From contig JASANE010003362.1 of the NCBI GenBank assembly GCA_030248225.1, positions 54,573-118,572 on the forward strand: a DNA stretch of 64,000 bases, read 5' to 3'. Of this stretch, positions 1 through 50,450 are shown piece by piece. The notes below the pieces were generated by a model. The model saw nothing but the letters and a program-made list of their open reading frames with translations, was not told the DNA's origin and searched no databases. The number at the start of each line of letters is the position of its first letter. The stretch's first letter is position 1. This DNA is from Trileptium ribeirensis. Lineage: Eukaryota; Nematoda; Enoplea; Enoplida; Thoracostomopsidae. Both the position numbers and the translations under genes were made by a program.

Positions 1-161
1 TATGGCTTAGTTAGGTCCACACGGTAGGTCGGAATCGCTGGGAGCTGGAACCACGTCGATTCTGGAGGGGCCAATGGCCCACTCAACGATACGCGTCCGC
101 TGGATCGCCTCCGAGTCTGCTCGGCTTCGTCGCTGCATTGCGGTTGCGTGGTGTCGGCCAT
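1..161 (-). CDS. Start of a third ORF of the giant retroelement (open at window edge)
   Basis: Reading leftward from an ATG at 161-159, 53 codons are open to base 3 and the frame leaves the window without a stop. The ATG directly follows a pyrimidine-rich 3' splice-site-like stretch ending TTCTTGCAG (176-162), the same arrangement as at the start of the SGNH-like ORF. The visible peptide is polar, with an Arg/Ser-rich patch near residues 16-24, and shows no recognisable domain, signal peptide or membrane segment. It lies about 200 bp after the SGNH ORF stop. It could be the start of a further accessory protein of the element, or a chance frame in the 3' untranslated region; the GC-rich coding-like composition and the splice signal favour the former. 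No function can be given. Confidence 0.45.
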   Translation of the reverse strand, partial: MADTTQPQCSDEAEQTRRRSSGRVSLSGPLAPPESTWFQLPAIPTYRVDLTKP

Positions 162-365: not shown

Positions 366-1613
366 TTACCAGGGTTCAGCCTTCTTATATAAATGGGCTT
401 CGCCCATGCGCCAAAATATGTCCGTACGGCGAATCAGTTCTTCCGTCCAATCGCATAGTTCTGGCCAAAACGACGGCGAAACTACTGGCTCGAGCCATCG
501 TTGGCGTTCTTCGCCTCGATTAAACGGACCAATCGCGTCCCAGGCTTCAACCCCTTTTAGCGCCGCGGGCCATTTCGGCATGATGACGCTCGTGAGCGCC
601 TGGTGCCCGTCCACCATCCTGGTCCTTCGCTCGGTCAGTTCATCGAACCACGCCGTGCTGTCGTACCGGAAATCATCCCAGTGTGGCGCTGGCCCGGTGA
701 TGACGATGGCCGAGTCTGCCCGGAGCCGTCGCTCGAGCACCATGAGGTGGCGTTTGATCCGCTTGAGGTAGGCGCCTGGCGAGAGTGCCTTGTTTGGCAA
801 GTTCCAAACATCCCGGTAGCCGCCGATGATGACGACGCAGTCTGTTTGCGGCGTTAGGAACGCGAGCGCCCAGTGGATCAACGAGATCATGCCGAGTCCG
901 GGCCGTACGAACGTGATGCGATTGTAGTCGTCGGCCACGTCCAACAGCGGCAAGGCACGCTCGTCGCCGACGATGATAGTCCGCGGCCACCGCACAAAAC
1001 GGTCGCGGTGGAACGACCGGATGTCGCATAGTAGATGTCCCAGCGCGTTGTGGTATGCCGGTTGGTCGGCCCCGCACTCGCTCCGGTGGACACCCGTACC
1101 CCAAAAGTTGTCAAAGGTGTCGTTGAGGAGCGGCTTATGGCCCGAATCATATAGGTCGTCCCAATAATCGAGGTCCTGGAACTTAGCCAGGAGAATTGGG
1201 CGCATGACGTGGACCTGGTATGATCGGAGCCATCGTCGAGTGTTGGCCGGCAGCGAGCGGAGGAGGGCTACGCTGCGTAGTTTAACCTCCGTCGGTGACA
1301 TCCGTTGATCCAAAATAGGGGCGATCGCCGAGACGAACCCCAATAGATCCAATATGGTGATGTAGAAATGCTCGGTGACGCTGCCGAGCTGGCGACCGTT
1401 GTGATTAAAGCCACCACCGTGGAGATAGTGTTCGTTGGCCAGCGTGTATTGATTGGATCGCTTGACCTCGACCGCCTCCCAGAAGCGTGAGCTGCTCATG
1501 TGGCTTCGGGGAACGGCCGGGTAACGGTGCCCATCGCACACTGCAGGCTCATGGAGCACTCCTTGTGGCAGGCGGGGCGCATGGAGATCGTTCTGGCTGT
1601 AGCTGCGACGCAT
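366..1613 (-). CDS. SGNH/GDSL-esterase-like accessory protein of the retroelement, catalytic serine apparently missing
   Basis: A 415-codon ORF 135 bp downstream of the gag-env-pol stop, on the same strand. Residues about 211-310 have the pattern of an SGNH hydrolase core. A hydrophobic strand leads into GDE (216-218), where active family members have Gly-Asp-Ser. A conserved-looking RPGLG loop follows, then a strand ending IIGGYRDVW (about 260-268), where active enzymes have G-x-N-D, and a later strand AIVITGPAP. The nucleophile position is Glu and the usual Asn is not evident, so a catalytically dead or divergent member is likely. SGNH folds are known in some LINE ORF1 proteins and in viral haemagglutinin-esterases, so a nucleic-acid- or glycan-related role is possible but unproven. 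No signal peptide or transmembrane segment is evident. The ATG lies right after a 3' splice-site-like sequence. Residues 1-200 are unrecognised. Confidence 0.6.
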   Translation of the reverse strand: MRRSYSQNDLHAPRLPQGVLHEPAVCDGHRYPAVPRSHMSSSRFWEAVEVKRSNQYTLANEHYLHGGGFNHNGRQLGSVTEHFYITILDLLGFVSAIAPILDQRMSPTEVKLRSVALLRSLPANTRRWLRSYQVHVMRPILLAKFQDLDYWDDLYDSGHKPLLNDTFDNFWGTGVHRSECGADQPAYHNALGHLLCDIRSFHRDRFVRWPRTIIVGDERALPLLDVADDYNRITFVRPGLGMISLIHWALAFLTPQTDCVVIIGGYRDVWNLPNKALSPGAYLKRIKRHLMVLERRLRADSAIVITGPAPHWDDFRYDSTAWFDELTERRTRMVDGHQALTSVIMPKWPAALKGVEAWDAIGPFNRGEERQRWLEPVVSPSFWPELCDWTEELIRRTDIFWRMGEAHLYKKAEPW

Positions 1614-1748: not shown

Positions 1749-4700
1749 TTAGTCCACTTGCGGGTCCGACTCATCGGACTCAGATTCCTCATGGGGTGGT
1801 GGTCGAGGTATGCGCTGTCGCCAAGCGGCAGGGTGCAGTTCTTGACTGGAGGGGTAGCGGGGGAACGTGGTTGGTGGCAAGGTTCCGCCGGGAGAGCGTT
1901 CTCCTGTTAAAAGTGGTCTTGGGGTCAGTATTGGCGCGCTGGTCATTGAAGTGGTGACACTTGTGGATTGTGCGCGTGTGGCGGAGGCTAGTCTAGTTGA
2001 GGTTCCCGCAGTATCGGCAGCGGTTGTCTCTGGTTCCTGAAAAGTCACGCGTCTAGGCCTACGTAAGGCGTCCTCTACTTCCTCGTCCGATGCTGCGCCA
2101 TACGGCCTAAAGACCCGGTCTCTAGCTTGTCGATGTAAAAGGTGCCTAGTTGGGGCTGTTGCCTGCGTGGTACTGAGTCGCATTATTCCTGAGGAGGTGG
2201 TAGTGGCTGTGGTACGTACCAACTCGGTGATAGTTACTGTGGACGGTCCCGGTTGTTCAGTGCTTGTAAACTGGATAGTTGAACTGCCTCGAGCCGACAC
2301 TATCTGTTTTCGTTGGGTGGCCCGTCCGACAAGGCCCTTTCCTCGCTCTTCTGACGGTGTTCGTGTGCTCCTTTGCTGGCTCGGCGGTGCTCGGGCGCGA
2401 GGAGGGGTACTTAGTGTTACTGCGCGCCCAGTTCCTCTCCGAGGTGCCGGTGCTTCGCTACTTGAACTTGCAAGTGTGAATTCACTAAATGAGTCAGAGG
2501 CACCCGGTTGCGTGGTAGGAGTCCTAGAGCTGGTGCTGGACGTTTCCTGTCCTGCCTGAGCGCGTCGTTCGGCAGAGGACGGTTCCTGCGAAGTTTGGCT
2601 AGTTAACTCGTCGTCTGCCTCAGCTGCTCTTATGTCTACTGTCGTGCCCTCTCCGGAGGTTTCCGACAGGTAACTGGACATTGGTGACCCTAGTGGTGGC
2701 TGAGTCATGGGTGCCTCGCGGAAGACCCATTGATGCGGAGACGTAGGCCAATTAGCGGCTACTGGTGGAGCACTATAAGGGCGCATTGTGGTATAGTCTC
2801 CTATGGTTTGGGTTGACATTTCCATTGGCACTCGCAATCGCGATGCCATAATGTGTTCGGCTGGTCGTGATTGAAATAGCGGGTGGTCCTGCGCGGCGAG
2901 CATGATTGCGTAGCGTAGATCCCCTGAGGTGTATGGTCCTGGTACGACGATTCCTCCCGAAGCTCCGCGTGGCGTGGTGGATAGCGTGATGTCTGCTGGG
3001 TAGAAATGTTGTCCCTCGAGTATTCCAACACCTACTGTTGGTACACCAAATGGGACTTCCTCGCTGGTAGCCACTATTCTTTCCATCGTGGTCACGGGCA
3101 CTGTATGTTGACCGTACTCTACCTGCGTATCTCGGCTACCAGGTTCTGGTATGTATGAGAAGGCTTCCTGACTAGTAACCTGCTCCTGTGATATTGGTGG
3201 CCATGATGGTTCTATTTCCCTATCCGGATCAGTTAGTGGGATCCGATTTCTGACCGTCCTTGGATTTTGAGGCTCGTAGTCGTCTGTCCGGTACTCAATA
3301 TGTTCCATCGCTGCTTGCTCGGCTTCGATCTCAGCGTAGGTCCGACGGTATAAATTAGGGTCATTAGGGTCACCCATTTCTATGCTTTCCGTATCGGAAC
3401 TGTCACTGACTGCTGTTCTTACGGTGCGCACTGCTACTTCGTCTACCGGCTCTATCTCGGTGACGAAATCCCTATCAGCGATAATACGTTGGGTCGCCTC
3501 AGTCAAACCTCGCTCTAGTACGGAAGCGTGTACTTGGCCTAACCAATCGCCTACGTTAGGTACTGGGTCTAATGCCCTAAAGCATGGTTTAGTTCTATTA
3601 ATATGTACGACATGGGCTATACCTTCTGGGTTAGAGTGCATTCGTACGCGCATACACGGCGGGGTGATCCCTAATATCTCGTATGGGCCACACCATCGAG
3701 GCGTGAGTTTCCTGGATGTTCCTGGTGTGGTGTCATGTCTATAAACCCAAACTAATTCCCCGGTGTGATAGCGTGGTTCGCGAGTTCGTCTATCGTATCT
3801 TAGGCGATTTAATTCTTGTGCGGCTTTCATTGATTGGTATGCACGCTCCCTAATAGAAGCCATCCAGCGCTGCGCGTTGGCCCTATAGGAATGTGCTCCT
3901 GTGTATCCAGTGGCAGCACTTTGCGTGTCGTATTCTCCGGGCAATCTAGGGTAAAATCCATGCATTAGCAAAAAGGGTGGGTATTTCGTTGCTGTGTGTA
4001 CCGAAGAATTGTAGGCCATGATGCAGAATGGTAGGGATACATCCCATGAGTGGTGATCATTTTGTGGTACACTCACTCGTAGCAAGTAGAGTAGTGTCCT
4101 ATTGAATCTTTCAATTTCCCCATTTGCTTGAGGGTGGTAGGCTAAACTCATGTGTCGAAAGATTTGCATTTCCTGGCATAGTTCTTCGAACATGTGCGCT
4201 GTGAAGGCACCTCCTCGGTCAGAATAGAGCTCCCTGGGAGCTCCGTACCTATTAACTACCTCATATAGGAATATGTGGGCAGCTGTATGAGCATCCTGGT
4301 GCCGCATTGGCACTGCTATTGCAAACTTTGTGAACTGATCTATGAATGCAATAACATAACGATTGCCTGCCTGTGACCTAACTTGAATATCCAGTATGTC
4401 CACAAATACACGGTACATTGGTTGATTTGCCAACGGAACCCTACCCAATCCTGTGGTTATCCGAGAAATTGGGTCCTTCGCGGACTGGCATAGAGTGCAC
4501 CGCCTGATCCATTGCTGTACGTGTTCGGACATACCTTTCCAGTAATAAAACTGTTTTAATTTTGCTATAAGCCGGTCACGGCCAGGGTGTCCTCCATATA
4601 AAGTATTGTGTTCATGTTTAAGTATTTGTTGTACAAGCGTGATAGGGACGCATAATTTGTAATTTATATCTCCGGGTTGTAACGGATGCATGTATAATAT

Positions 4701-7700
4701 TTTGGTATCCGCTGCCAATTCAAAATAATGTGCGCGCATTTCTATTCTGAGCGCCCCCAATTCGGCTTTAGGCCGAGTTTTGTTGTAAAGATACCACCAA
4801 ATTGGACCCAGTTCTGGGTCATTTCGTTGAATATATGGTAAGAGGCGTACTAAATTAAAATCTGGGAGATCTGAAAAGAATGGTAAATATATATTCTCAT
4901 GTGTGTCCTGAGCGTCCTCAATTCGGACGGTTGGTAATATCTCGGTTTCATAATGCATCATTAACTTCATGAGCCTATCAAATTCTTGTTCTGTGGGTAG
5001 CGTGGTTGCTCTTAAGCCCATGGTCTCTGATTCGGTGCGGAACGGTCTTTTAGGTCCCCGAGCCTGAGGTCTGCCGTCAGGACCCGAGATAGTGGTAGTA
5101 CGGACCGACATCACTGGGGTTTCTCCTGGATCCATCCTAATTGGGATGGCACTTAACGTTGCTGCCTGCTGGGTCAGCGTAGCCGGGGGTACTGTAGTTA
5201 TTTGCGTGTCAGGGACTAGCTGTGATGGGATTGCTTCGGGATTGGGTTGACCTGGAGGAGCCATCGGGCTCCCTGTTATAGGTGTCGGTGCACCGGTCGC
5301 AAGCGGTGTAACAGTGCGTACGGGGTACGGCAGGTGCGATTGATCCCATGCTGCGCAGGTTGTTGGCGGGCGTGGTCCGGTGGGTCGTCCCCGACCCATC
5401 ATAAGGACTTCGTACGTATCACCTATTTCCTCGATTACAGACGGGTCGTATCTAGGGTCGCGTGACAGAGCATCTGCATTGCCATTTTCCTTACCTGGTC
5501 TATATGATATTTCGAATCCCCCAAATTCAAGTAATAGCTCGCTCCGCCATTGGGACAAGCGTGAGTTTCTGGGTGGTTTGTCAAACAGGGTTTTAAGTGG
5601 TTTGTGGTCGGTTTCAACATGGAATTTGTGCCCTACTAAGTAATGCTTGAAATGTAATGCGGCCCATCTAATAGCGAGAGCTTCAGTTTCTATTGCGGGA
5701 TACCTGCGTTGATAATCAAGGAGGGCCTTACTAGCGTATGCAATGGGTTTGATTCCTTGCTTAGTCTTCTGGGATAATACTGCACCCATTGCATATCCGG
5801 AAGCGTCCGTTTGCAGGATAAACGGTTGCGTGAAATCAGGGTGAACTAGGACCGGTTCATCTAGTAGTGCTTGTTTCAATTTCTTAAAGGCTTCCTCGCA
5901 CCTAGGGGTCCATTTGAATTCCATGTCTTTGCGTTTTAGCTCATTTAACGGCTCACAGATGTCCGAGTAATTTTGGATGAATTTATGGTAGTATCCTACA
6001 AGCCCTAAGAAACTTTGGAGTTGTTTCAACGTTTCCGGACGTTTGAATTCTTCGATGGCTATCGCCTTTTCTGGGTCTGGTTTGACACCTTCGGTACTAA
6101 TTATATGTCCTAAATATTTGAGGCTGCCTCGTCCGAAGTGACATTTTGAGGGTTTGAGTTTTAAGTTTGCCTTACGGAAACGATCGAAAACCCGAATCAG
6201 GTCTGCCAGATGGGCCTCGAATGATGGTGAGAAAACTAGGATGTCATCGATGTATATTAGGCATTTTTCCCACTCAAGCCCTTTCAAAATCATTGACATG
6301 CAGCGTTGAAAGGCTCCGGGGGATGAATTTAACCCGAACGGTAGGACATTATACTCATACTGTCCGTGTACCGTCACAAAAGATGTCTTATCTTTGGTTT
6401 CGGGATCTAGTTCTAACTGCCAAAACCCCTTATTTAGGTCCAAACTGGACATTAATTTCGTATTCCTGAGACATCCTAGTATATCATCTATGCGTGGCAG
6501 TGGATATGCATCTTGCTCTGCTACGGTGTTGACCTTCCGAAAGTCGACACAGAGTCGGAGAGAGCCGTCGCTCTTAGTTACATAGACTATTGGTGATCCC
6601 CAAGGTGAGCTCGATGGGGCTATGAGGCCTGCGTCTAACATGCTATTTAGTTCTTCCCTGAGTGGTTCGCGTAAGGAATGCGCTAGCCTATAAGGTGCTT
6701 GTTTGATTGGCTTTGCGTCCCCGGTTTCTATGCGATGTCGATGTTCCGTGTATCGTCCAAGGTCAAAGTCATGTGTGCTGAATACGTCCGCATTTTCAGC
6801 AATTGCAGTTTTCAGCTGTTTTAGTTCGAAAGGCGATAACAGTGTCTTATCAAAATCTATTTTACTCAATACTGTTTGAGCGCGTTCGTGATCAATGGAG
6901 CGTTTGCCGGCCTCGATGTGCTCGATAATCCTCTCAGGGTGGGTAGTAATATGGTTAAGCTGTTTAGCTTCCTTATGTTCTTCGTACCGTATCAAATTCT
7001 GATTGGTATCCTTAAGGAATTGTATTGTGGGATTGCTCATAACCTCTATGTGCCCGATAGTTTGGCCTGAGTATATGGTGACCGGGGTATTACCAAAATT
7101 GATCACTGCGATTGGTATAGTTCGCTGACTCCTGAGCACTAATGCGTGTGCCATTGCAATGTCCGTCATTTCGGGAGCGGGGACAAATAGAGCGGGTCCT
7201 ACGCCTGTGTCAGCAATTTCGGGGATGGCGTTGATAAACGTTTCTGTATTTGGTTCGATAGTGGTGAGTTTTCTGCACATCACCGCTATTAAGGGTGGGT
7301 CATAGCGCTCTAAACCGGCGAAGGGTATTTTGGCTTCTTCCTCATCTATGCCAATTTCTAGACAGCGCTCGCGAAAATTTATAATGCACTTAGGCAATTG
7401 CGACAAGAAATTTGTTCCTAAGATGCAATGATACGGAGCGGTTTGGGTAACGAAGAATTCTGTTTGCACCTTAATAGGTCCAATTGATAAGGGTACACTT
7501 ATGCTACCGTCCAGTGCTAATTCCTGTTTGGTGGCCGATACTATCCGCGTCGAGTCGTCTGGGCGGGGCTGAAGGCCTAGCTTATTTACCAAATGCTGTG
7601 ATACGATAGAGACGTCCGCGCCTGTATCGATCAACGTGAGTACCGGTGTCCGGTAAATGAAAGCATTGATTAGCAACGGGGCGTCTACGTGCTGCATGGC

Positions 7701-10700
7701 ATTGACCTGCCGGTGGTAAGATACTGTGCGATGTCCCCTACGTTGAGCACGCTCGGATACTGCAAATAGTTCCGTAGGTTCCACCAAGACAACGTCCTCG
7801 TCCTCACTAGGGTTATTTAGTCGAGCCGATCGACGAGGGCTCAATGTCCGCAATTCCAGGTGTTCCGTGGACGCGGCTGGGGCTGAAACTGTCGGTCGGA
7901 CTGCGTCTGGAGTACCATACTCGTTCCCGGTTTTGATGTTCAACTCAAGTCTCTTCAGGTTAGTTTGGCTACATGGTCGTTGCTGCCACCAGCGTTGTAA
8001 GCGTCCCCGTATGCATTTCGGGCAGAAACCTGTTTTCTTCTTAAAGTAAATTATCGCCCCTATACCTACAATTACTAGCACAACGAGCATCCACAGGTAA
8101 GGAGCTACGCCCGTTGTCGTAATGTATGGGAAGTCGATCACCTTCTTCAACTGCTCGTCGGCTATCCGTTGGACCTGTAAGTTGGTAGCCTTGGCGTGTT
8201 CCAATGAGCTCCAAGTGATGGGTTGAAGAGGAATATCTGGGAAGTCATGTATGGTGATGTTAGGTCCGATGTTAACGGTGACCTCCTGAGCATCTAATGT
8301 ACTGGCGAGCATTAGTGGTCCGACCACTAGTTGGGTATAGTCGCTATGTGCCAGCCACAACACCCCATTTTCCGGTATCTGGATGGTTTCTCCGCGCGTA
8401 ACGTGACTGAGGTGCTTTTGCTTGGAGACCACTGCTTTGGGCTCAGCGGTTCGAATTAGTACCCCTTGCGCGGTGGTGTACACGTCAGTATGGTTGACCA
8501 TTGGTCCAACCAATGCGCTGTTCCTGCAAATGCGGCGCGTGTCATCTGGAGCATCTTCGCCCATGATGATCCAATCCAAACAGCGTGAAGAATGGTCAGT
8601 GGCTAAAGCGTGAACCTCGCAAAAAGCAATGCCAGGTCGCGTGTTGCATGCGTGCAGGTTCAACACCTCATATCGGGCCTGTTCCACTCGCGTGGCATAT
8701 TCTGGCAGAGGTAGTCTCATGTGTGCGCTGCGCTCTGGTACGTTCCAACCGACGTTGTATATCCGAAAATAAGGCCGGACGTCGTCCGACGTAACTAGCG
8801 GTACCCTTAGGATGAATGCAAACTTGAACGTGCCCAGGTCAATATGCACTGGGTAAATTTGTCCAAATTGGTAGGCTAGCGCTGGTTCGCGTGTTAGTAT
8901 AGTTTGTTCTATCCTTGGATCCTTTTCGAATAGACGCTTTAGTGTCGCGGCATCCACTACCTTGGGTGATAGCTGTCCGCTCATCATGGCTTCCATGACA
9001 GCGTCAACTGACGAGCGCAGGCTAGTGCGGAACATGTGGTTTACCAATTCGCGATGTACCTCTGTCACGTAGCGTTGTTCCTGGCATCTAACCTGTTCTA
9101 TCATGCCAACCACTTCCTGCATTTCGTGGTGCAAGAAGGAGTAAAGTTCCTCATTGGCGCGTGTTAATTTCAAAATTGCTCGCGCGTTGCCCTGGGCCAC
9201 ACTGTAAGTGTTTCGCATTTCCTTGGATAATGCTATCACCTGTTTATTCAGGTCCTTTAGGTGCACTGCATTTGTAAAAGCTACCCCTACTCCTAAAAAT
9301 CCTGTAACTACGCCTGCAGCTCCAGCTAGGGCAGCGAGAAATCTTTTCTTACGAGCCCTTGGCTCTTCACAAAAATGAACGTTCGCTTCGCAATATTCAC
9401 GCATTAGGGCCATGTAATAGCTTGTATCTAGCACACCCTGATATGTGCTTCTTAATTCTCGCTCCAACTCTTGAATTTTACGCTGTAGATCCGGCATGGT
9501 AGTACAATTCGGGTTGGGGCAACAGTTTCCCAGGCATGGTTTACCCCTGGGGGTGTAGACACACCACGCCATACCGGTTGCTTGCCTGCTCGGTTGCAAC
9601 CCATCTAAGGACAATCGCAAAACGATCGGTAGAAAAGTTGATCGCGCGGCGGTTATTACCAGACCCTGTGGTTCGATTAAGGTGCCTACTTGTTGGTTGA
9701 CCATAGCTCCTAAGCGTGCTACCTGGTCCGAAAATGGCGTGGCGATTGCCTGGGTCTGACCCATTTGTTGAACGATAAGTAGGAAAATTACTAATCCCAC
9801 GAATCTAATCCCGTGGCTCCACAATTCTGCAGCTGCTACATATTGTCGGCTTAGTCTACTTGAGAGGGGCCGTACCGACCTGGTCAGTATTATTCGGGCA
9901 CCCTCAGTTGCGTCGACATATGGTTCGTCCTCGAGATCGTCGTTGTCCGAGGGTGGGTCGAGTTCAGAAACCACGTCGTCCGAGTCGAGCGTTGCGATAG
10001 CGGACATATTAAATTCATCCTCGGTCAAGTCACTAGGCGCTGTACTCAACTCGCTCTCAAGCTCCTCCTCGTCAATGAATGTTATGTCTGCGTCTGGGTT
10101 GGCAATCGAGCCGGCGTCCATGTCGTCGTCCGGATCAGCTTGCCAGATATTTTGTGCGGGTTGACGCAGCCACAGTAGTCTCAGGTATAGCAGTTCTTCG
10201 CGTTTCTGCACGCTGTCTACTTGCTTAAAAATAGCATTCGCTATGACTGCATATACGATGTGGTCAATTGACAGCACCGGTGCAATGGGACCGGATTCGC
10301 CATATTCCGTAACAAGGTAGTCCAGCAAATACGGTGCGCTGGTCACAATTTCTAGCCATTCCAAATTAGCGTCCCTGTATGCGGTCAACTCAGGAGCTGT
10401 GTGCAACCCATATGTACGACTTGGCTGGATGGTGATAGTTCCATTGCGTCGGACGGTGCCGTATTCGGCAGACAAATTTCCTGTATAGTCCCACTCGCCA
10501 TGATAGGTGACAAAAGTGCAACCGCGGGTGGGCATAAAATTAGTGTTGTGTCGTCCCTCGCACGCCTGGCATGTCTGAAGGATGGGAATCTGAGAACGGT
10601 ATATTTCAGTAATGGCCTCAGTAATACTCATTGAGTTCAACACCCGGGCAACTAATTCCAGCAAGCCCTCGAGGTGTCTCACCATGCTACTGCTGACATG

Positions 10701-15656: not shown

Positions 15657-18600
15657 TGTACTAGGACCAGTTCTGGCCCTAAGGGATCCCAGCTGCACCA
15701 CTCTCAGTATTCATTGTGGCGCCCGGACAACCCCGGCTTACACGATTCCCCGGTGGACCCTAGTCTGACCGATGGGAACCGCTTAGCTTAGCAGGTTGCC
15801 AGCGGGTTTACCAGGGTGTTCGGCGTGGCCCCTATGATGGCCCACGTGTCTAATGGCATGGAGGTCCCCCTGAGGGAGGGTCATCCCTAAGCCTGCTCAC
15901 AGGTAATAAGGCTGACCCGTCATTCCCTCATCTTCGATTATCGAATCTTGTGCCCTATGTCGGGCCAGCATTTCCTAACGGTGGAGCCCAATTTTATAAA
16001 GATTTTAGTGAGCTTAAAGACTATTCCGTAGCCCTTGGGCTCGAGTACGCGGAGTTTGGCCGGATCCTCTTAGCTCAACTTAGAGTCGGACACGCTGAGC
16101 CTGCTCGGGCTATTATGTATAAGACGTTGGCGTTAAAGCTCAAGAACTCGCACCAAGACTTATTGCTAACGACGGACGGATGGGGCGCGGGTGCATGCAG
16201 AGTTGGGGGAGCGCTGAGGGTAGGCGGACCAACATTGAATTTTAGCAAAGCCCGAACAGATGCCTGGGCGGAGAGCGACGACATGGCAACAAGAAAACGG
16301 CATGACGGGAGCGAGCGTCGTTGGGGCTGCGTATTGGAGGAGGACAGGGATCTACGTTAACTAACACTGAACACCTTAGTGGGGTCATGCAATTCTTGCT
16401 ACAGGAAGCCTGAATTTAAATCGATATATTTCGCCTACTGAGTTTCACACGCAAAACTTTTATTTCATGGTTTTCCCTTTTTTGGCAAAAATTTAAAACA
16501 TAGGCACACGTTTACAAAACAATATTCACCCACTCGGGTGCATCAAAGCATTGTATTATTTACACCATGGACGAGCCAGGACCCGAGCCCCATGCGCGCG
16601 GTCCTGGGCCCGACTGATACTGTAACGATTAGCTCAGGTTTGATAGAAATTTGACACCCCTTTTAAAGTTGGTTTCTCTACGCCCCCATTGGCTGACGAA
16701 ATAGTGTCCCATGAGCTCCATTTGGGCTCTTTTCGAAACGCGGAGCCCTCGACCCGAAATCTGGTATTAACATCCTTGCCTACTGTTCATTTCCACGTTA
16801 ATTGTCCAAGACTGCTAACATCTTTAGTGCCGCCTTAAGCTTGATCTCGCATTTGCCTTTATTCAATTTTGAAAACGCGGGCACAGCACTTACGGGAGCG
16901 CGAGGCATCCGCCGGACACCGCAGCACCCGCAAGGGCTGCCCCAGATCCTACGCCTAAGCGACATGAGAAGTTTTAAATCTCTGGGAGGTGCCTCGGGCG
17001 GATCTCTTCCACGCGTCCGCAGTCGAAGAGTCCACCCGAGATAACCAGAGCTACGCTCCCCAAATGCTCAGCTCTCGAATTTTCCTTTTTGGTTAGAAAC
17101 TTTGACCGACGATCCTTCCTAAGCGAATTTAAACCAGAACAATACAATCCTCAAACACCTACTCGAAATTTTAGCGGCGTGCCATTAAAATTGCTGCGTA
17201 ACATGCTGTAACACATGAATAGTTCACCCCCTGGGCACAAACGATAAAAACGACCCAGGGGGCGGGGAACCAGTCGAGTGCGGGAGAACCTTCCCCAATT
17301 TTCTGCAATTTAGACGCGATTTTGACTACAATTTGTCCAACGCTCAACCCACTTCCCAGCGCGGGCGCAGCGCTTACGGGAGCGCGAGGCATCCAACGGA
17401 CACCCCAGCACCCGCAAGGGCTGCCCCTGATCCTAAGCTCGAGCAAAATTCAAAAACCTCGGAAAACCCCGGGCGGAGCCTCTTCCGCACGTCTGCATGC
17501 CGAAGAGCCCACCCGGGCTAAACGAAAAACACGAAAAACGAAGCAACGGGAAATTTAAAAGAAAAGCTTGGCGACAACCGCCAACACAAGCCAAACTTTG
17601 AAAACAAGGCTCGACTGGTCCCACTTTGTAAAGTGAGTGGTCTCCTTTTATACCCTGTCCCCCCAGCTTCCCCTGCCAATGCAATACCAACTTCGATAAG
17701 TTTGAAACCTTAAATGTGGTAGGCAATGCACAAATATAAACCTACAGTTTAAATCAGGCAACCGTAAGCGAAACTATATATATATAGACGTACATGTGCC
17801 AAATACTGAACAAAATAAGCGGCAACATGTAAAATAAAATGCCGCCGCTAACATAGCTGCAAACACAACACTGTAGCGATATAAACATAGCGACAGCCCC
17901 TGAACATTTGAAGCTAGCCGGACAGTGGCCGAACGTGCCAGCGGCGTAAACAACTAAACCTCGCGCTGGTCGGTGCGGGACAAATTTTAAACAGAAATAT
18001 AACGGCACTCAAGGCGCCGTTCGCTCATAGGGATATCGGCACGTTTTCGCCGATATCTCGAGATCTAGGAACAGTAGGCGGCCGGGGGCAGGACCGGAAT
18101 CATGCCCTGGCAGGCCGGCTACTGATGAAAATTTAATATTTAATGTAGCTCCCACAGGAGGCATGTTAGAGACCGATTTAGGCGACAATATATGATAATT
18201 TTGGGGTCCCATTTAAGTTTGGTGGATCCTGAGCGGACCCGCGGGGTTGGGCGGCCCCTGTTTTAAGTTAAGCGGTTAGGGGAAAACCCGATAAGTGTCC
18301 CGGGCTCCAGAAATCGGGGAGTTTCAGGTACGTTGGGTGCCCTCTAGGGCTTAGAAAATTGGAGGCTTGAGCGCCTGTTCGGGGGTCCCTAAGTATTTAG
18401 GGGATCCAAATTTTTAGACCCGCCGGGACGGTTTGGCACCCCAGCAGGGTCCTTAAGAGGGCTCAGTCACCCCCATTCCCTTAAAATTTGTGGGTGGCCC
18501 AAAAATTAAATTTTCGCGTCGCACCCTAAAAAGACGCCTTAGAAATTCTGTATCCTAGAATACTCTGTTTTGATTTTCTCCGGCCAAGGATTTTGATCGC

Positions 18601-19151
18601 TTAAAACCCTGCTTGGGCACATCCGGATATTCCTCGACCTACGAAAATATATAACGAGCACCAATACACAGCAGCTATCGCGAGATACTGATTATTCGGC
18701 GTGTGCGCTGGGATCGGCCAAGGGCGACCAGTTTTTGTATAATACCAAAAATCTCTGAAACGTCCGTTGGTCCCCGGCCTCGCCGAACGCACACCCGTTC
18801 TGCACACCAAGTACAATAAAGCATATACAATATAATGCACAAACTTTGTATATACGTAAGACAGCATCAATTTGTTTCCCGAGGATCGACCGGACACCCC
18901 TACTTAAGATACCTGCCTTCAATTTCGGTGCCAAAATCATCCCGGGCACCTTCGGGCGGCGGAGTGTGACCATACAAACACAATATAAATGCGATACAAG
19001 TGTTTATTTTATTACCATAACAATAGTATAACATTACACAATGATCATTTTATCAAAAGGCCACACTCCACCGGTATCCGGTCGTCCGTTTCCCGTTTTC
19101 CATAGCGCGGCGAATTACAGCTGGTTGAAAGCTCTTGCCAACTGCAGCACA
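15657..19151 (-). repeat. 5' LTR of the giant retroelement (about 3.5 kb)
   Basis: Starts TGTGCTGCAG (19151 downward) and ends CTAGTACA (15657) on the minus strand. Homologous blocks shared in opposite orientation with 19379-23676 include 15657-15940 with 23400-23676, 17230-17660 with 20800-21250, 18030-18500 with 19960-20390, and 18930-19110 with 19450-19600. The axis of symmetry shifts by roughly 400 bp between the outer and inner blocks, so this copy lacks about 0.8 kb present in the other. U3 is 19151-17617, with the transcription start predicted near 17616. A segment around 16840-17060 repeats part of the R region at 17330-17530, an internal duplication. Boundaries rest on the TG/CA ends and the sharp loss of homology. 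Confidence 0.85.
17608..17654 (-). promoter_or_regulatory. LTR core promoter (TATA + initiator), left LTR
   Basis: On the minus strand TATAAAAGG (17652-17644) is followed 36 bases later by the initiator-like ACCAGTCGAG, putting the start near 17616. The same two elements at the same spacing occur in the solo LTR at 20810 and 20845. Transcription from here would run into the gag-env-pol ORF. Confidence 0.75.
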
Positions 19152-22300: not shown

Positions 22301-23676
22301 TAGGGAAGTTCTGGTGCTCGCACCCGTTAATCGGGCGACGACCCTGAGAAGGACACGAAGTAACTGTCCCCCGCAACTTTTCAGCGAAGGAAAAGTTATA
22401 GGCGCGGACCCATAGACCGTTTAGACACGGTGGGTTTCGGCATAGCGCCCCGTTTTCATGTCAAGTTATAAATTCAAAAATTTCACAAGGTAAACAATAT
22501 TCGGGAGGCGCGGCAGCGCCTCCCTCTCTTGACGAGGCCCCCCGCTTTCTATCTGACCCTGGCGCACGCAGAGATTGAGGACAAACTTTCATTGCAAGTA
22601 ACCAGCAGCTGACGTCCGGCCTCAAGATAACGAACGGCACAAGGATGGAGTACAAAGAAAAAGGGCAATGTCAAGAGGATGCCTGAGAGTCCAGAGCGTT
22701 TTCATAGGCAAAGTCACCAACCAGTCGGCCAGGAAACTTCATTTCAGCGTCCTGCCAGGCGGGTAGGACAGACCACAGGGTACAAAATGTGGGCATAAGC
22801 TGAGTCGATTTTTACGCGGGGTTTAATCAGGATTCACATCACCCGCTCGGTACCTAAGTATATCACGGGGTGCCCTGCGAGGTACCCATACATTTTATGG
22901 TATATAAATCATATTGGTTATTGGAATGTCATAACTTGCAATTTATCGAAATAAAGTGTTGGAGTGTGCTATCTATAGTCGGCGATACTTGTTCCGCGTC
23001 GTGATTAACCCACGTTCTAAATAATAACAATCTAGAGTAAACCTGAGGCGAAATCTAAGTCTATAGGACCTGCTGTGCCTAGGTCATGTAAGGCTCTCCT
23101 AAGTTGGCGAGGAAATTACGCCATCCGTTAAGGCTCCGCCGCAGCGGCGAATGACAAATCCAATTGTTGGTTTAGTCTTGAAGTTCACAGCAGTTAGACT
23201 CGTTTGGTAGTTGGTGCTCGGCTATGATCAACTTTATTCCAACTAGGTAGGGACCCTGTGGATGGATCCCCAGGTGTTCCCTCGAGCTACCAGCTTAGCA
23301 GAAAACTTCTGGTCAAACCCGCAGAATTTATCGTCGGGTCTAGGCTCCCGTGTACCCGACTGCAACAAGAAGTCGCGCCCCATTTAGGATTTAAGTGGAA
23401 TCGAGGGAAAGGCGAGTCAGCCCTATTACCTGTGAGCAGGCTTAGGGGTTGACTCTCCCTCAGGGGGATCTCCATACTACTAGGCACGTGGGCCAAGATA
23501 GGGGCCAGGCCGAACATCCTGGTTAACCCGCCGGCAGCCTGCTAAGCTAAGCGGTTCCCTTAGGTCATCGCATGGATCACCGGGGAGTCGTGGAAGCCGG
23601 GGTTGTCCGGGCACCACCCGCTGGGACAATAGTGGTGCAGCTGGGATCCCTTAGGGCCAGAACTGGTCCTAGTACA
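19379..23676 (+). repeat. Solo LTR (about 4.3 kb) of the same retroelement family, inverted relative to the provirus
   Basis: Begins TGTAACAGCC and ends CTAGTACA, and is flanked by the 4-bp direct repeat CAAT (19375-19378 and 23677-23680). It shares colinear blocks with the provirus 5' LTR in inverse orientation, including the TATA/initiator pair. No gag or pol follows, so it is best read as a solo LTR left by recombination between two LTRs. A donor-like GGGGTGAGT lies at 21264-21272, about 420 bp after the predicted start. Divergence from the other LTR is substantial, so the two insertions are of different age or subfamily. Confidence 0.82.
20809..20851 (+). promoter_or_regulatory. LTR core promoter (TATA + initiator), solo LTR
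   Basis: TATAAAAGG at 20810-20818 and the initiator-like CCAGTCGAG at 20843-20851, 35 bases from TATA to the predicted +1 at 20845. It is conserved with the left LTR and points rightward, away from the provirus, so the two promoters are divergent. Confidence 0.7.
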
Positions 23677-23680
23677 CAAT

Positions 23681-28597: not shown

Positions 28598-28670
28598 GTC
28601 CCGGTGGCCTAGAGGATAAGGCGTTGGACTCCTAATCCAAAGATCGGGGGTTCGAATCCCCCTCGGGACC
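28598..28670 (+). tRNA. tRNA-Arg (anticodon CCT)
   Basis: A 73-nt cloverleaf. The acceptor stem GTCCCGG pairs with TCGGGAC (one G-T). The D arm is GCC...GGC. The anticodon stem TTGGA/TCCAA encloses the loop CTCCTAA with anticodon CCT at 28631-28633. The T arm GGGGG/CCCCC encloses TTCGAAT. The internal polymerase III promoters are intact: A box TGGCCTAGAGGA (28605-28616) and B box GGTTCGAATCC (28649-28659). A T run follows at 28676-28687 as terminator. No intron, and CCA is not encoded, as expected for a nuclear eukaryotic gene. It reads AGG codons. Confidence 0.97.
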
Positions 28671-43056: not shown

Positions 43057-43573
43057 CGATAAATTTTATTGACTAGGTTGGGCTAAGCTTAAGTCAAAGC
43101 TTATGCCGGATCAGAGGATCCACCTTGTGGTTCATAAAGTTTGCTGCAGTACTAATATTAATTTATTATTTGGATCTTCAGATCCACCTTGTCAATTCAA
43201 ATAATTCATTACCTTATTGCCGTACTACTATTTATTTTAGTGATATTAAGTTAGGTGCTTATTATTTGTGTAGTAAGTGAAGTCCTAGGTTCCGAGTGCT
43301 AACCATTACACAAGGCCATCGAGAAACATTGAAAAGTTTTATAATCATTAGGACTCGCTTTGCTACAATATATTTAGCAATAATTTAATTAATAACTAAG
43401 CCGACTACAACGTTACCAGAACATTTAGATAGAGACAATATATATAGCGGCTCGTACATTTACCGAACAGTTTCAAAAAATTTACTCCCCAATAAGGAAC
43501 ATTTAAAGATTAACACGTGTGAAGTAGAAATTTTTCTAATTAATGTAGCCTACTAAGATAGTTCAAATATCTA

Positions 43574-46341
43574 AATGACATGAATTTCGTCAAGGACAGT
43601 TTTCCACAGTGAAACTGAAACGTAAAAACCTATTTGTTCCTTATATCCACTGATTTGGCACTACATATTTTGTTATTGCCAGGAATATTATTCCTCACAA
43701 ATGACATGAATTTCGTCAAGGACAGTTTTCCACAGTGAAACTGAAACGTAAAAACCCATTCGTTCCTTATATCCACTGATTTGGCACTACATATTTTGTT
43801 ATTGCCAGGAATATTATTCCTCACAAATGACATGAATTTCGTCAAGGACAGTTTTCCACAGCGAACCTGAAACGTAAAAACCCATTTGTTCCTTATATCC
43901 ACTGATTTGGCACTATATATTTTGTTATTGCCAAGAATATTATTCCTCATAACTGACATAAATTTCGTCAAGGACAGTCTTGCACAGTGAAACTGAAACG
44001 TAAAAACCTATTTGTTCCTTATATCCACTGATTTGGCACTATATATTTTGTTATTGCCAGGAATATTATTCCTCATAAATGACATAAATTTCGTCAAGGA
44101 CAGTTTTCCACAGTGAAACTGAAACGTAAAACCTATTTGTTCCTTATATCCACTGATTTGGCACTATATATTTTGTTATTGCCAGGAATATTATTCCTCA
44201 TAAATGACATGAATTTCGTCAAGGACAGTTTTCCACAGTGAAACTGAAACGTAAAAACCCATTCGTTCCTTATATCCACTGATTTGGCACTACATATTTT
44301 GTTATTGCCAGGAATATTATTCCTCACAAATGACATGAATTTCGTCAAGGACAGTTTTCCACAGTGAAACTGAAACGTAAAAACCCATTTGTTCCTTATA
44401 TCCACTGATTTGGCACTACATATTTTGTTATTGCCAGGAATATTATTCCTCATAAATGACATGAATTTCGTCAAGGACAGTTTTCCACAGTGAAACTGAA
44501 ACGTAAAAACCCATTTGTTCCTTATATCCACTGATTTGGCACTACATATTTTGTTATTGCCAGGAATATTATTCCTCATAAATGCCATGAATTTCGTCAA
44601 GGACAGTTTTCCACAGTGAAACTGAAACGTAAAAACCTATTTGTTCCTTATATCCACTGATTTGGCACTACATATTTTGTTATTGCCAGGAATATTATTC
44701 CTCATAAATGACATTAATTTCGTCAAGGACAGTTTTCCACAGTGAAACTGAAACGTAAAAACCCATTTGTTCCTTATATCCACTGATTTGGCACTATATA
44801 TTTTGTTATTGCCAGGAATATTATTCCTCATAAATGACATGAATTTCGTCAAGGACAGTTTTCCACAGTAAAACTGAAACGTAAAAACCCATTTGTTCCT
44901 TATATCCACTGATTTGGCACTACATATTTTGTTATTGCCAGGAATATTATTCCTCATAAATGACATGAATTTCGTCAAGGACAGTTTTCCACAGTGAAAC
45001 TGAAACGTAAAAACCTATTTGTTCCTTATATCCACTGATTTGGCACTACATATTTTGTTATTGCCAGGAATATTATTCCTCATAAATGACATGAATTTCG
45101 TCAAGGACAGTTTTCCACAGTGAAACTGAAACGTAAAAACCCATTTGTTCCTTATATCCACTGATTTGGCACTATATATTTTGTTATTGCCAGGAATATT
45201 ATTCCTCATAAATGACATGAATTTCGTCAAGGACAGTTTTCCACAGAGAAACTGAAACGTAAAAACCCATTTGTTCCTTATATCCACTGATTTGGCACTA
45301 TATATTTTGTTATTGCCAGGAATATTATTCCTCATAAATGACATGAATTTCGTCAAGGACAGTTTTTCACAGTGAAACTGAAACGTAAAAACCCATTTGT
45401 TCCTTAAATCCACTGATTTGGCACTACATAATTTGTTATTGCCAGGAATATTATTCCTCATAAATGACATGAATTTCGTCAAGGACAGTTTTCCACAGTG
45501 AAACTGAAACGTAAAAACCCATTTGTTCCTTATATCCACTGATTTGGCACTATATATTTTGTTATTGCCAGGAATATTATTCCTCATAAATGACATGAAT
45601 TTCGTCAAGGACAGTTTTCCACAGTGAAACTGAAACGTAAAAACCCATTTGTTCCTTATATCCACTGATTTGGCACTATATATTTTGTTATTGCCAGGAA
45701 TATTATTCCTCATAAATGACATGAATTTCGTCAAGGACAGTTTTCCACAGTGAAACTGAAACGTAAAAACCTATTTGTTCCTTATATCCACTGATTTGGC
45801 ACTACATATTTTGTTATTGCCAGGAATATTATTCCTCATAAATGACATGAATTTCGTCAAGGACAGTTTTCCACAGTGAAACTGAAACGTAAAAACCTAT
45901 TTGTTCCTTATATCCACTGATTTGGCACTATATATTTTGTTATTGCCAGGAATATTATTCCTCATAAATGACATGAATTTCGTCAAGGACAGTTTTCCAC
46001 AGTGAAACTGAAACGTAAAAACCCATTTGTTCCTTATATCCACTGATTTGGCACTATATATTTTGTTATTGCCAGGAATATTATTCCTCATAAATGACAT
46101 GAATTTCGTCAAGGACAGTTTTCCACAGAGAAACTGAAACGTAAAAACCCATTTGTTCCTTATATCCACTGATTTGGCACTATATATTTTGTTATTGCCA
46201 GGAATATTATTCCTCATAAATGACATGAATTTCGTCAAGGACAGTTTTCCACAGTGAAACTGAAACGTAAAAACCCATTTGTTCCTTATATCCACTGATT
46301 TGGCACTATATATTTTGTTTTGCCAGGAATATTATTCCTCA
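43574..46341. repeat. 126-bp satellite array, about 22 copies
   Basis: Units of 126 bp begin AAATGACATGAATTTCGTC and end GCCAGGAATATTATTCCTCA; the repeat of this start at 43700 and 43826 gives the period. The end of each unit holds the palindrome GGAATATTATTCC. Copies differ at few positions, for example C/T in CCCATTTG and C/T in ACTA(C/T)ATATT. One unit (near 44130) and the last (near 46320) have a missing base. Because 126 is divisible by 3, long minus-strand frames run through it; these are not called as genes. Confidence 0.97.
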
Positions 46342-47410: not shown

Positions 47411-49039
47411 CGCCACTCCTTTGCCCACCGCCGCGCGTGTAAAGCACGCGTAAACTTTTCAGATAAAATTGACAAAAATTGGGAAAATGTTCCAAAAATT
47501 ATCAAAAACTGAGGAGTAAAATCGGAAAAAATTTATGAGTTTCTGAAATTTTCAAAAATTTATACCCCCCCTTACTATCATCCTTCTCCGCTGAGACCAT
47601 ATACTACCTCGAAGACGGCGGACCTTCAACAGCTATTGTTTTAGGCCCTAACCTGTGGCTCTCGGTAGTAAACTTACCAAAACTTAGAGCAGGCTCATCA
47701 TTTCCCTGCCAAGTGCGCTTTCGCTTAGCGAAATTAATGTATAGTAGCACTTATAACATTGTAATTCGTGATCACTAGATAGTATAAATATCTATCATCA
47801 GTGTCTCTTCGTCTTAAATTTGAGCGAGAGAAATTCTGTATTTTAAATGCTATAAGCATACATATGCATGCACGCTTTACTGTTTTGTCGGTTTAAATTT
47901 CATCAAATACACCTCAACAAAGATGTGCTTTGGTTGTTTTAGAGAAAGAAACGTTTTTTTGTTTCTGAAGATAGTTAAAAATATATTTGTCCATTATCGT
48001 TTTGCCATTATAACGTTATCTGCTGTCGTTCGTTAGTTTAACTATATATCAAATTATACGTTTTAAAATTTCTAATATATTCATATGAATTTCTTAACTA
48101 AATGTGTTTTTTAAGTGTAAAAATGTTATAAGTTACTGTTATTACGTTTTGCTAAGACATATATATTAGTTACTATGTTTTAGGTTACTGTGAGTTTGTT
48201 ACTGTGGCCTTTTACATTTGATGCAGAGGGTTTGGAATTCAGATCTGACACAGGGATTTATAATGGAAAATCTAATATTTTTGCAGTTTATAAAGATTGT
48301 TGTTATATGTTTAGGCCTAGCCGATTTGAAAAATACCTTTCGGCTCGGCTACCTTGTCCGGAGAATGTATCTTTTAACGGCGGAAGTGAAATGCATGCCA
48401 TGTCATTCTCGATATAATACGCCTTAGTTTTAGCCTAAGCTAAAGTCCCTATATGAGCCATGTACTAAGCCCAAGCCTAAGTCGAGATCTTCCCCCCAAA
48501 CTCCCCGCTCTAAGCTGTTCTTTTTTTAACGTTATAACGTCCGGCCTCTAAAGGTGACATCGGCCCCTGGTCCGATAATCCTGATTCCCGTAGTTACAGC
48601 AACACTTTTGGTACCATTTGACTAAGCGGAGCAATGCGGTTCTTAAAATGTCTATTTTGACATATTTCTGAAGCTGCTCCTCATTTTTTCAACTTTTTGC
48701 TTACAATTTTGTAACAGCTGTAAATGTAGTTGTAATTATTTTTCAGGTTCCTAAACACGATTAAAAACCATGCCTATATGAGCTGAGCCGAAGGGAAGCA
48801 ATGTCATTCTTCTATCTATTCAACTGCTAGTTATCGGCCTGGTGGCTAGCTAAAATGACCCTTAAAGTAGCACATCAAAAAAGGATAACATACTAGTTAA
48901 CGTAATAAATTACAAAAAGTGAGCGGAACGATAGGCAAAGTATTTGGTGTCTTATTTGTGTATACATGCATTTCAACTAAATATTTAGTCAATTTATAAT
49001 AAGTATCACGTTTCAGATTGCTGCCAAATCTACCATACA
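47411..49039. other. Intergenic, no gene seen
   Basis: AT-rich sequence with no supported coding or RNA feature. Confidence 0.4.
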
Positions 49040-49660
49040 AAAAGTACTAATTATATAGTAATATTAACTAATTAGCTAATTAATTAACTAATTAGAACCC
49101 ATGATAAAATCATAGAGCTTAAAAAGCCACATATTCATGATCAGCGGCATCGAACCCCCGAGCTCAAAAAATTTGCAATTATTAGGCGATTTTAAAATTT
49201 GCATAAATTTACCACATTAGCTAATTAATTAACTAATTAGCTATATGACCAAGTTTTAGAGCTTTAGGAATGTCATATTCGTGATCAGCGGCATAGAAAA
49301 CTCACATATGCAATTCATTTTTCATTTTTGAACACTGAAAATTTTCAAACAATTAGCTTACAAATAATTATGATGTAATTAGATAATTAACTAATTAATT
49401 AGCATGCTTTTAACTTCCTCGAATAATAAATAACACACCAGATTCATAATAAGCATGGGAAGATGTAGTATATGCACCAAAATTATAGCTTTACACTAGT
49501 TATTCACTGAAAAATATGCAATTTTTATTTGGAAATGTTAAAAATAGGCTAACTGGCTTAACTAATTAGTTAACTAAAAAGCTTAAATAATTTTGACAAA
49601 AACTACATGTCGGATATTAGCTTTTCAAACAAAATTTTTTTAAATCGGCCCAGTAGTTAT
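49040..49660. repeat. Degenerate tandem repeat, about 155-bp period
   Basis: The palindromic run TTAGCTAATTAATTAACTAA recurs near 49066, 49216 and, degraded, 49380. ATATTCATGATCAGCGGCAT recurs at 49130, 49286 and, degraded, near 49440. The region ends with AAATCGGCCCAG, shared with the array at 33970-34520. Confidence 0.6.
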
Positions 49661-49794
49661 TGCGGAGTTCAACGGACGGACGGAAAGACAGTGCCGATTT
49701 TCCACTCTCACGAAAACAAAAATGCTTCACTTCGCTCTGCTCAAAAAGCAACGTTATACTATACACATAAGTATTTTCAGAATAAGGTCACATA

Positions 49795-50450
49795 AAGTAT
49801 TTATGATTAAGTTGAAAATTGGACCATGATGACACAGCGATCAGAGTAAGTGTCACATAATATGTATATATCAGTAAGTTAAAAAATTGGACACTGACGA
49901 CATAGCGATTACAATAAGTGTCACATAAAATATTTATGAGTAACTTAAAGAACGTACCCTAATGACACAGCGACCAGAATAAGTGTCACACAATATATAG
50001 GTTAGGTAAAAAATGGACTCAGATGACACAGAGACCATAATAAATGTCACATACAATATTTTAGACCGTGACGACACAGTGATCAGAATAAGTGTCACAT
50101 AAAACATTCATGAGTAAGTTAAAATGAATCCAGATGACGCAGCTATCATAACAAGTGTCACATAACATATATATGAGTAAGCCAAAAATTGGACCCTGAC
50201 AACACAGCGATCAGATTAAGTGTTCCTCCAAAATAGTTATGAGTACGTTCAAAAATTGGAAACTGAAGACACAACGACCAGATTAAGTGTCACATAAAAT
50301 AGGTATAAGTAAGGCCTAACATTGTACACAGATAACACTGAAACCAGACTATGTGTCACAAAATATTTAAGAGTAAGTTAGAAATTTGACCCTGATGAAC
50401 AGCGATCAGAATGAGTAGCACATAAAATATTTGAGTAAGTTATGCATCAT
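49795..50450. repeat. 62-65-bp minisatellite, first block
   Basis: About ten degenerate units built on GACACAGCGATCAGA and AAGTGTCACATAAAATA. Further blocks of the same unit lie at 50990-51404 and 54189-54300; the last two are parted by a LINE insertion. Confidence 0.85.

What the first reader, a model, noticed from the sequence alone, without database searches (positions are those of the whole stretch)
1749..14744. Envelope module sits between gag and protease in a single 4331-codon retroelement ORF
The intact ORF reads gag (zinc knuckle 322-335), unknown segment, envelope (polybasic site 1796-1801, fusion-peptide-like stretch, anchor 2217-2234), then protease, RT, RNase H and integrase. Retroviruses and errantiviruses place env after pol. 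A gag-env-pol order within one frame would need unusual processing, splicing or membrane insertion. The frame has no stop over 13 kb and the pol catalytic residues are all present, so the order is not a product of decay.
Basis: partly seen in the sequence, partly recalled or inferred. Interest (0 to 1): 0.92.

Follow-up and report, generated by a model that had tools for sequence, protein, structure and literature searches.

The report
Retroelements with envelope before the enzymes

Summary
The minus-strand ORF 14744..1749 (4331 aa) reads Gag/CCHC, spacer, envelope, PR, RT, RNase H, IN. The order belongs to a family: 15 of 86 scored PR-RT copies keep an open frame of at least 4314 aa, 19 of 19 loci examined keep the placed segments colinear in one frame, and a Logan protein (P0007) has the same order with a 30%-identical envelope. 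Envelope dN/dS is 0.036, PR side 0.031. A diverged family in this genome links the envelope to paramyxovirus-type F0: PF00523 over cut-off at 2 of 6 places, 24% identity, same gag-envelope-PR order. Another own-genome family, an ENA protein and a C. japonica protein carry a different glycoprotein (PF24664) in that slot. No acceptor-like splice site was found between residues 72 and 3290, whereas both downstream accessory ORFs start at one. Most likely Gag-Env-Pol is one polyprotein threaded through the ER membrane and then cut. The order is shown; threading and fusion activity are inferred.

The parts
1749..14744 (-). Single 4331-codon ORF: Gag - spacer - Env - PR - RT - RNase H - IN - C-terminal extension
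   Evidence: 15 of 86 own-genome rows, the window's included, with open frame of at least 4314 aa
13737..14744 (-). Gag with CCHC zinc knuckle (residues 1-336, knuckle 321-336)
   Evidence: PF00098 over cut-off; 27% identical over 144 aa to the gag of family D copy C12847
9828..13736 (-). Spacer, residues 337-1639: low-complexity, in-frame duplications (spacings 162 and 123 nt), less constrained (dN/dS 0.177 for residues 1145-1639)
   Evidence: no family over cut-off
7998..9827 (-). Envelope segment, residues 1640-2249: signal-like helix, RARKKR furin-type site, fusion-peptide-like stretch, cysteine-bearing ectodomain, membrane anchor
   Evidence: 30% identity (173 of 574 aligned columns) to P0007 env; about 24% to family C env, which hits PF00523; dN/dS 0.036; nine cysteines and RKKR kept in 28 of 28 copies compared
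9342..9359 (-). Polybasic site RARKKR (residues 1796-1801) before FLAALAG
   Evidence: RKKRFL also in P0007, REKRF in family C
8043..8099 (-). Membrane anchor YLWMLVVLVIVGIGAIIYF (residues 2216-2234), 6 K/R in the 15 residues after the hydrophobic core
3585..7652 (-). PR (about 2365-2449), RT (2723-2882), RNase H (2945-3070), IN zinc finger and core (3366-3538), IN C-terminal match 3658-3720 (just below cut-off)
1752..3344 (-). C-terminal extension, residues 3801-4331, Ser/Thr/Pro-rich, no family over cut-off
366..1613 (-). ORF2, 415 aa, weak NADAR match (28.8 bits, cut-off 35.1); its ATG directly follows an acceptor-like ...TTTTAG
1..161 (-). Start of ORF3, a diverged paralogue of ORF2 that runs off the window (contig positions about 54733 down to 53474); ATG directly follows ...TTCTTGCAG
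15657..19093 (-). 5' LTR, inner end ...CTAGTACA at 15657; outer end not resolved. Partner LTR outside the window at about contig 48959-52473; the pair aligns at 86%
   Evidence: 98.4-98.8% LTR pairs in two other copies
15630..15647 (-). Candidate primer-binding site TGGGGGCCACGCCGTGAG just inside the 5' LTR, seen in three of four other copies read (one mismatch in C12847; LTR end not located in C12305); tRNA not identified

Best explanation
This is an intact-frame member of a family of giant (about 25 kb) Ty3/gypsy-type LTR retroelements that captured an F0-like fusion glycoprotein between nucleocapsid and protease. Shown: the order, the single frame, its conservation in many copies and in diverged relatives, the strong purifying selection on the envelope, and the use of the same slot by a different glycoprotein in other families. 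Inferred: the full-length RNA is translated as one Gag-Env-Pol polyprotein. Gag stays in the cytosol, the internal signal sequence starts translocation, the ectodomain folds in the ER lumen, the anchor stops translocation, and PR-RT-IN is made back in the cytosol. Signal peptidase and furin cut the lumenal side and the element's protease cuts the cytosolic joints, as in the processing of flavivirus or alphavirus polyproteins (recalled). Gag, Env and Pol would thus be delivered to one membrane site in fixed proportion. The two downstream accessory proteins would be made from spliced RNAs.
For: Order and frame. Copies. Independent protein P0007: CCHC, env 660-1224, PR 1316, RT, IN, sister of the window in two RT trees (99; 100/97). 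Selection: env dN 0.0075, dS 0.210, ratio 0.036 (20 copies, 190 pairs); PR side 0.031 (18 copies, 153 pairs); spacer 0.177 (18 copies, 153 pairs); the other subfamily 0.022 (8 copies, 28 pairs); between subfamilies dN 0.063-0.070 with dS 2.2 and 3.1 in 2 of 8 comparisons and saturated in 6. F0 homology: P0007 env 20.2 bits, family C 30.9 and 29.8 bits at its two best places, with CCHC, Fusion_gly and PR in one frame in 3 of 3 loci scanned, RT and IN further on in 2 of 2. Same slot, other glycoprotein: P0022 (PF24664, E 2e-97, between gag and PR); own-genome family D, glycoprotein then PR in one frame in 4 of 4 loci scanned; gag upstream in 2 of 2 (in the same frame in C12847; in C14492 a stop or shift separates it) and RT/IN downstream in these 2 and in 2 weaker-scoring copies. 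Hydrophobic segments before and after the ectodomain in window, P0007, P0022 and family C. No acceptor-like site between residues 72 and 3290: 0 observed, mean 6.6 in 200 synonymous shuffles, lowest 2; ORF2 and ORF3 both have one at their ATG, seen also in some other copies.
Against: No RNA or protein data. The window env itself matches no Pfam envelope family, so F0 kinship rests on homologues, and the three family C loci scanned as proteins score 24.0-27.7 bits, below the cut-off 29.8, with their CCHC at 18.6 bits, below 20.8. Structure prediction failed (two rows, mean pLDDT 34). Splice matrices were generic and recalled; for the 300 codons around the env start alone the absence is not unusual (mean 0.97, 28% of shuffles have none) and over the whole ORF it is 5 observed against a mean of 10.9. 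The 15 residues before the signal-like helix have no charge bias (1 K/R, 1 D/E). One of 12 extra copies tested lacks the envelope. The window's own LTR pair is only 86% alike and I read no matching target-site repeat. 17 of 72 env copies hold stops. The copies used for dN/dS were the best-scoring ones.
Confidence: 0.72

Rival explanations
1. Env order is real, but Env is expressed from a spliced subgenomic RNA, as in errantiviruses, and the open frame from Env into PR is incidental or makes an Env-Pol fusion.
For: Errantivirus env is made from a spliced RNA, in one subclade joined to an exon within gag (PMC12992720, passages). Donor-like sites lie in gag and spacer (residues 253 and 1004). Cer1 makes a spliced protein from an element without a stop between gag and pol (PMC10309623, passages). 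Near the env start the lack of acceptor-like sites is not unusual.
Against: No acceptor-like site of 7 bits or more between residues 72 and 3290, while both accessory ORFs have one at their ATG. Env and PR lie in one frame in 19 of 19 loci, open as far as the PR active-site motif in 15 of 15 plus-oriented loci, and in P0007, P0022, families C and D, which splicing would not require.
Confidence: 0.17
2. The segment is a membrane-anchored capsid or assembly domain with class I-like looks, not an entry protein; the element stays inside the cell.
For: No experimental fusion data; window segment without Pfam envelope match; AF2 model uninformative.
Against: Furin-type site directly before a hydrophobic stretch, conserved cysteines, anchor, and homology through family C to Fusion_gly F0, over the curated cut-off at 2 of 6 places. 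Other families put a viral fusion glycoprotein (PF24664) in the same place.
Confidence: 0.09
3. Assembly chimera or decayed copy that happens to be open.
For: Window LTR pair only 86% alike, no target-site repeat read.
Against: 15 of 86 rows with open frame of at least 4314 aa on different contigs, dN/dS 0.036, independent protein P0007.
Confidence: 0.02

Closest known systems
Errantiviruses / insect endogenous retroviruses (gypsy, ZAM)
   Same: Ty3/gypsy pol with captured glycoprotein, furin site, fusion peptide, anchor (PMC12992720, passages)
   Different: There env-F is a third ORF made from spliced RNA and is of baculovirus F type; here Env lies between Gag and PR in one frame and its homologues are F0-like
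Atlas virus and hookworm belpaoviruses
   Same: One stop-free polyprotein holding gag, pol and env (2828 aa, PMC9094657, passages)
   Different: Order Gag-Pol-Env with the glycoprotein at the C terminus; belpaovirus RT; class II glycoprotein
Bdelloid TelKA LTR elements
   Same: Envelope of paramyxovirus F type, pfam00523 (PMC5408684, section 3.2)
   Different: Described as an ORF3, i.e. downstream of pol
Anakin (mosquito Pao elements with chuvirus glycoprotein)
   Same: Capture of a glycoprotein from a negative-strand RNA virus (PMC7642597, passages)
   Different: BEL/Pao. Order within Anakin was not read here (figures not held); the paper describes earlier BEL/Pao envelopes as downstream of the polyprotein
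Cer1 (C. elegans)
   Same: No stop between gag and pol; accessory protein from a spliced RNA (PMC10309623, abstract and passages)
   Different: CERV's ORF follows pol and is a nuclear RNA-export protein, not an envelope
Lokiretroviruses
   Same: Env similar to Mononegavirales fusion glycoproteins (PMC9040795, passages)
   Different: Retrovirus sister group with dual RNase H; env placed after pol (placement recalled)

Membership tests
Ty3/gypsy-type LTR retroelement (Metaviridae) | PR-RT-RNase H-IN order, closest solved relative Ty3 | tested here: met
   best PDB match Ty3-G Gag-Pol, E 1.5e-104
Ty3/gypsy-type LTR retroelement (Metaviridae) | Gag with CCHC knuckle | tested here: met
   PF00098, 23.8 bits, cut-off 20.8
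Ty3/gypsy-type LTR retroelement (Metaviridae) | Paired LTRs, TG...CA, with target-site repeat | tested here: inconclusive
   LTR pairs 98.75% over 3688 bp (C15305), 98.4% over 3615 bp (C1266), 85.5% over 4443 bp (C12847), in three pieces of 92-99.9% in C12305; a TATG repeat can be read in C1266, not in C15305 or C12847; window pair 86%, no repeat read
Retrovirus / errantivirus gene order | env after pol | tested here: not met
   Env 1640-2249 before PR 2365
Errantivirus env (baculovirus F type) | match to the baculovirus F family | tested here: not met
   no such family listed up to E 10; HMMER filters limit this
Paramyxovirus-type F0 glycoprotein (PF00523) | profile match over curated cut-off | tested here: inconclusive
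   window segment none; P0007 env 20.2 bits, below the cut-off 29.8; family C over cut-off at 2 of 6 places in the genome search but 24.0-27.7 bits, below it, for the three loci scanned as proteins
Paramyxovirus-type F0 glycoprotein (PF00523) | furin-type site, fusion peptide directly after it, conserved cysteines, C-terminal anchor | tested here: met
Paramyxovirus-type F0 glycoprotein (PF00523) | class I trimer fold | tested here: inconclusive
   model pLDDT 34
NADAR (ORF2) | profile match over curated cut-off | tested here: not met
   28.8 bits, cut-off 35.1

The most novel reading that the evidence does not exclude
There is an overlooked assemblage of gag-env-pol retroelements. The joint between nucleocapsid and protease is a docking slot into which different viral fusogens (F0-like, and Monjiviricetes/gB-like) have been inserted more than once, flanked by a signal helix and an anchor so that one membrane-threaded polyprotein yields Gag inside, Env outside and Pol inside. 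Env expression then needs neither splicing nor a separate gene, and Pol is delivered to the budding membrane by Env.
Probability: 0.55. Interest if true: 0.93.

Novelty: new variant of a known kind. Interest (0 to 1): 0.88.

Why it matters
Retroviruses are thought to arise when an LTR retrotransposon gains an envelope, and in the papers read here the gain is a gene or domain after pol. Here envelopes of two different families were gained inside the polyprotein, in frame, and one shows selection about as strong as that on the protease. If the threading holds, a retroelement uses an expression strategy known (recalled) from flaviviruses and alphaviruses, which removes the need for env splicing and makes testable how a Gag-Env-Pol chain in equal proportions assembles.

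Tried and rejected
Env segment alone against proteins of about 336-1067 aa: none of the 7996 candidates scored reached E 0.01. P0007 env region against proteins of about 1397-4445 aa: of 7770 candidates only P0007 itself. Phage records and IMG/VR: no relative. PDB with env: nothing convincing, best E 0.21. AlphaFold2 with two rows: mean pLDDT 34, not used, and no fold search was made. RT tree of 51 chosen rows to ask whether env-in-slot elements are one clade: backbone unresolved, the label needs 5 changes (bootstrap 4-6), at least 2 forced by well-supported branches; rows without the label are often partial proteins, so this counts little. NADAR plus retrotransposon paper search: 104 papers, 20 listed, no title bore on it and none was opened. 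Host phylum: COX1 search did not complete. Assembly artefact and decay: rejected on copies and dN/dS.

Full report
Observation. The minus-strand ORF 14744..1749 is real: 4331 codons, one frame, about 202 stops expected by chance and none found. [quoted passage not shown] the best solved relative of the pol part is Ty3. Between them, after a 1300-residue spacer, lies a 610-residue segment with a signal-like helix, RARKKR at 1796-1801, a hydrophobic stretch and an anchor at 2216-2234.

Other copies. The window is G000:C2216:54573-118572 of a 687-Mb assembly of unnamed host. The env segment has 72 scored copies (2639 first-look candidates, 72 scored) at 87-100% identity; 17 of 72 hold stops; 10 of 72 lie in open frames of 4319-4346 aa. 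The PR-RT piece has 86 scored copies (4798 candidates), 15 of 86 in open frames of at least 4314 aa. In 19 of 19 loci examined (L002-L020, the best-scoring ones besides the window) the segments that could be placed (spacer, env and PR in 15 loci, two of the three in 4) lie colinear in one frame. In 15 of 15 plus-oriented loci the frame is open from env through the PR active-site motif; the minus-oriented ones were not read properly in that script. 43 of 86 PR-RT rows share a contig with an env row, distance not checked; of the other 43, 12 were tested and 11 have env at the expected distance; C12031 does not.

Selection. Among 20 copies of the window's subfamily env dN/dS is 0.036 (190 pairs), against 0.031 for the PR side and 0.177 for the spacer (18 copies, 153 pairs each). 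In the other subfamily it is 0.022 (8 copies, 28 pairs); between subfamilies dN is 0.063-0.070 while dS is 2.2 and 3.1 in two of eight comparisons and saturated in six. In all 28 copies compared RKKR and nine cysteines are kept. The 20 copies are the best-scoring ones, so intactness itself was selected for; the dN to dS contrast should be less affected.

Relatives. A search with env to IN gave 420 proteins at E up to 0.001 among 7981 scored candidates, the best 120 listed; of these 120 only P0007 matches the env segment convincingly. P0007, a 2540-aa protein from a Logan contig, has three CCHC knuckles (about 397-465), an env homologue at 660-1224 (30% identity, E 7e-96), PR at 1316, RT and IN. 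Its RT is sister to the window's in two trees (99 in the quick tree of 120 rows; 100/97 in the careful tree of 51 chosen rows). P0007's env alone reaches Fusion_gly F0 (PF00523) at 20.2 bits, E 2e-4, below the cut-off, the match beginning just before the furin-type site. Searching the own genome for PF00523 gave six places, two over the cut-off, and none in 14 control genomes. All six are relatives of the window env (23.6-25.8% identity, E 1e-28 to 1e-41). In the three scanned (L039, L040, L042) CCHC (18.6 bits, below cut-off), Fusion_gly (24.0-27.7 bits, below cut-off) and PR lie in one open frame, and RT and IN follow in two of two, in the same frame by arithmetic on the coordinates. I call this family C. 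Eight cysteines are invariant among window, P0007 and C.

A second fusogen in the same slot. P0022 (ENA, 2871 aa) holds gag 67-160, Monjiviricetes_fusion (PF24664, E 2e-97) at 558-1205, PR 1292, RT and IN; P0058 (C. japonica, no gag family found in its model) holds PF24664 342-478, anchor 551, PR 645, RT and IN. In the own genome PF24664 has 68 scored places, 11 of 68 in stop-free frames of 2006-3016 aa, none in 14 controls. In four of four loci scanned the glycoprotein and a hydrophobic anchor are followed in frame by PR. For C12847 gag homologous to the window's lies upstream and RT and IN downstream, in one frame of 2367 aa by arithmetic on the coordinates. For C14492 RT and IN follow in frame, but the gag upstream ends at a stop and is not in the glycoprotein's frame. 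For two weaker-scoring copies (C56, C2829) RT and IN lie downstream; gag was not found in the piece fetched for C2829 and not looked for in C56. That PF24664 is a class III fusogen is recalled; weak PF00606 (herpesvirus gB) matches below cut-off agree in 3 of 4 loci and in P0058. Of the 120 listed relatives, 32 have an RT start beyond residue 700; among the rows printed (RT start beyond 500) only P0007 and P0022 show a CCHC motif and two or more hydrophobic segments between it and RT; many of the rest are partial.

Expression. With generic splice matrices (recalled) no acceptor-like site of 7 bits or more lies between residues 72 and 3290, against a mean of 6.6 and a minimum of 2 in 200 synonymous shuffles. 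Over the whole ORF it is 5 against a mean of 10.9 (3.5% of shuffles as low), and close to the env start alone the lack is not remarkable. ORF2 and ORF3, diverged paralogues downstream of pol, each begin at an acceptor-like AG|ATG. Of four other copies looked at, the ORF2 site is seen in L033 and L035 and not found in L031 and L037; the ORF3 site is identical in L031 and L035, diverged but kept in L033, and not found in L037 (L021 is the window's own copy). This suggests spliced accessory RNAs but an unspliced Gag-Env-Pol RNA. Hydrophobic helices before and after the ectodomain, and six K/R after the anchor core with none before it, fit a chain that enters and leaves the membrane; the signal-side charges are neutral. 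The threading model is inference.

Element. LTR pairs align over about 3.5-4.4 kb, TG...CA, 98.75% (C15305) and 98.4% (C1266) alike within copies, in broken pieces of 92-99.9% in C12305, with a conserved candidate primer-binding site. The window's own LTR pair aligns at 86%, and C12847's at 85.5%, without matching target-site repeats that I could read; recombination between proviruses would explain an intact ORF between unlike LTRs, but this was not tested. The element spans about contig 48960 to at least 73665, about 25 kb.

Literature. The phrase gag-env-pol occurs in 0 papers of the held library. Nine other searches listed no paper that, from the listings or the passages I read, describes an envelope between gag and protease; most listed papers were not opened, and the library lacks most subscription journals. 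Single-frame gag-pol-env is known in Atlas (PMC9094657), no stop between gag and pol in Cer1 (PMC10309623), spliced third-ORF env in insect errantiviruses (PMC12992720), F0-type ORF3 in TelKA (PMC5408684), negative-strand virus envelopes in Anakin (PMC7642597) and lokiretroviruses (PMC9040795). What I saw: passages of all six, abstracts of PMC10309623 and PMC5408684, and one whole section (3.2) of PMC5408684.

Verdict. The gene order is real, conserved and recurrent; I hold it a new variant of the envelope-bearing LTR retroelement, with an expression mode that deserves testing.

Noticed in passing
window 366-1613 (-) and L021 8702-9979 (-): Two diverged paralogous accessory ORFs (415 and 425 aa as listed), NADAR-like below cut-off in the first, each opening at an acceptor-like AG|ATG.
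   Followed up: partly
window 15653-15929 and 23403-23680: Inverted 85-98% repeat; the right arm is another piece of the same LTR family in opposite orientation.
   Followed up: partly
window 15657-19093 against contig 48959-52473: Unlike LTRs (86%) around an intact ORF; the same holds for copy C12847 (85.5%), while two other copies have 98-99% pairs.
   Followed up: partly
window 11914-12067 and 12354-12582: In-frame duplications (spacings 123 and 162 nt) in the spacer.
   Followed up: no
P0022 residues 2480-2567, 2610 and 2731: A second protease-like stretch (E 0.03) and two further hydrophobic segments after integrase.
   Followed up: no
L044 3894-5600 (+), L045 3809-5599 (+): A further long open frame downstream of pol in family C, unidentified.
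   Followed up: no
window 43572-46341 and 60861-62051: Tandem arrays of 126-bp (22 copies) and 198-bp (6 copies) units.
   Followed up: no
window 28598-28670 (+): tRNA-Arg (CCT) gene.
   Followed up: no
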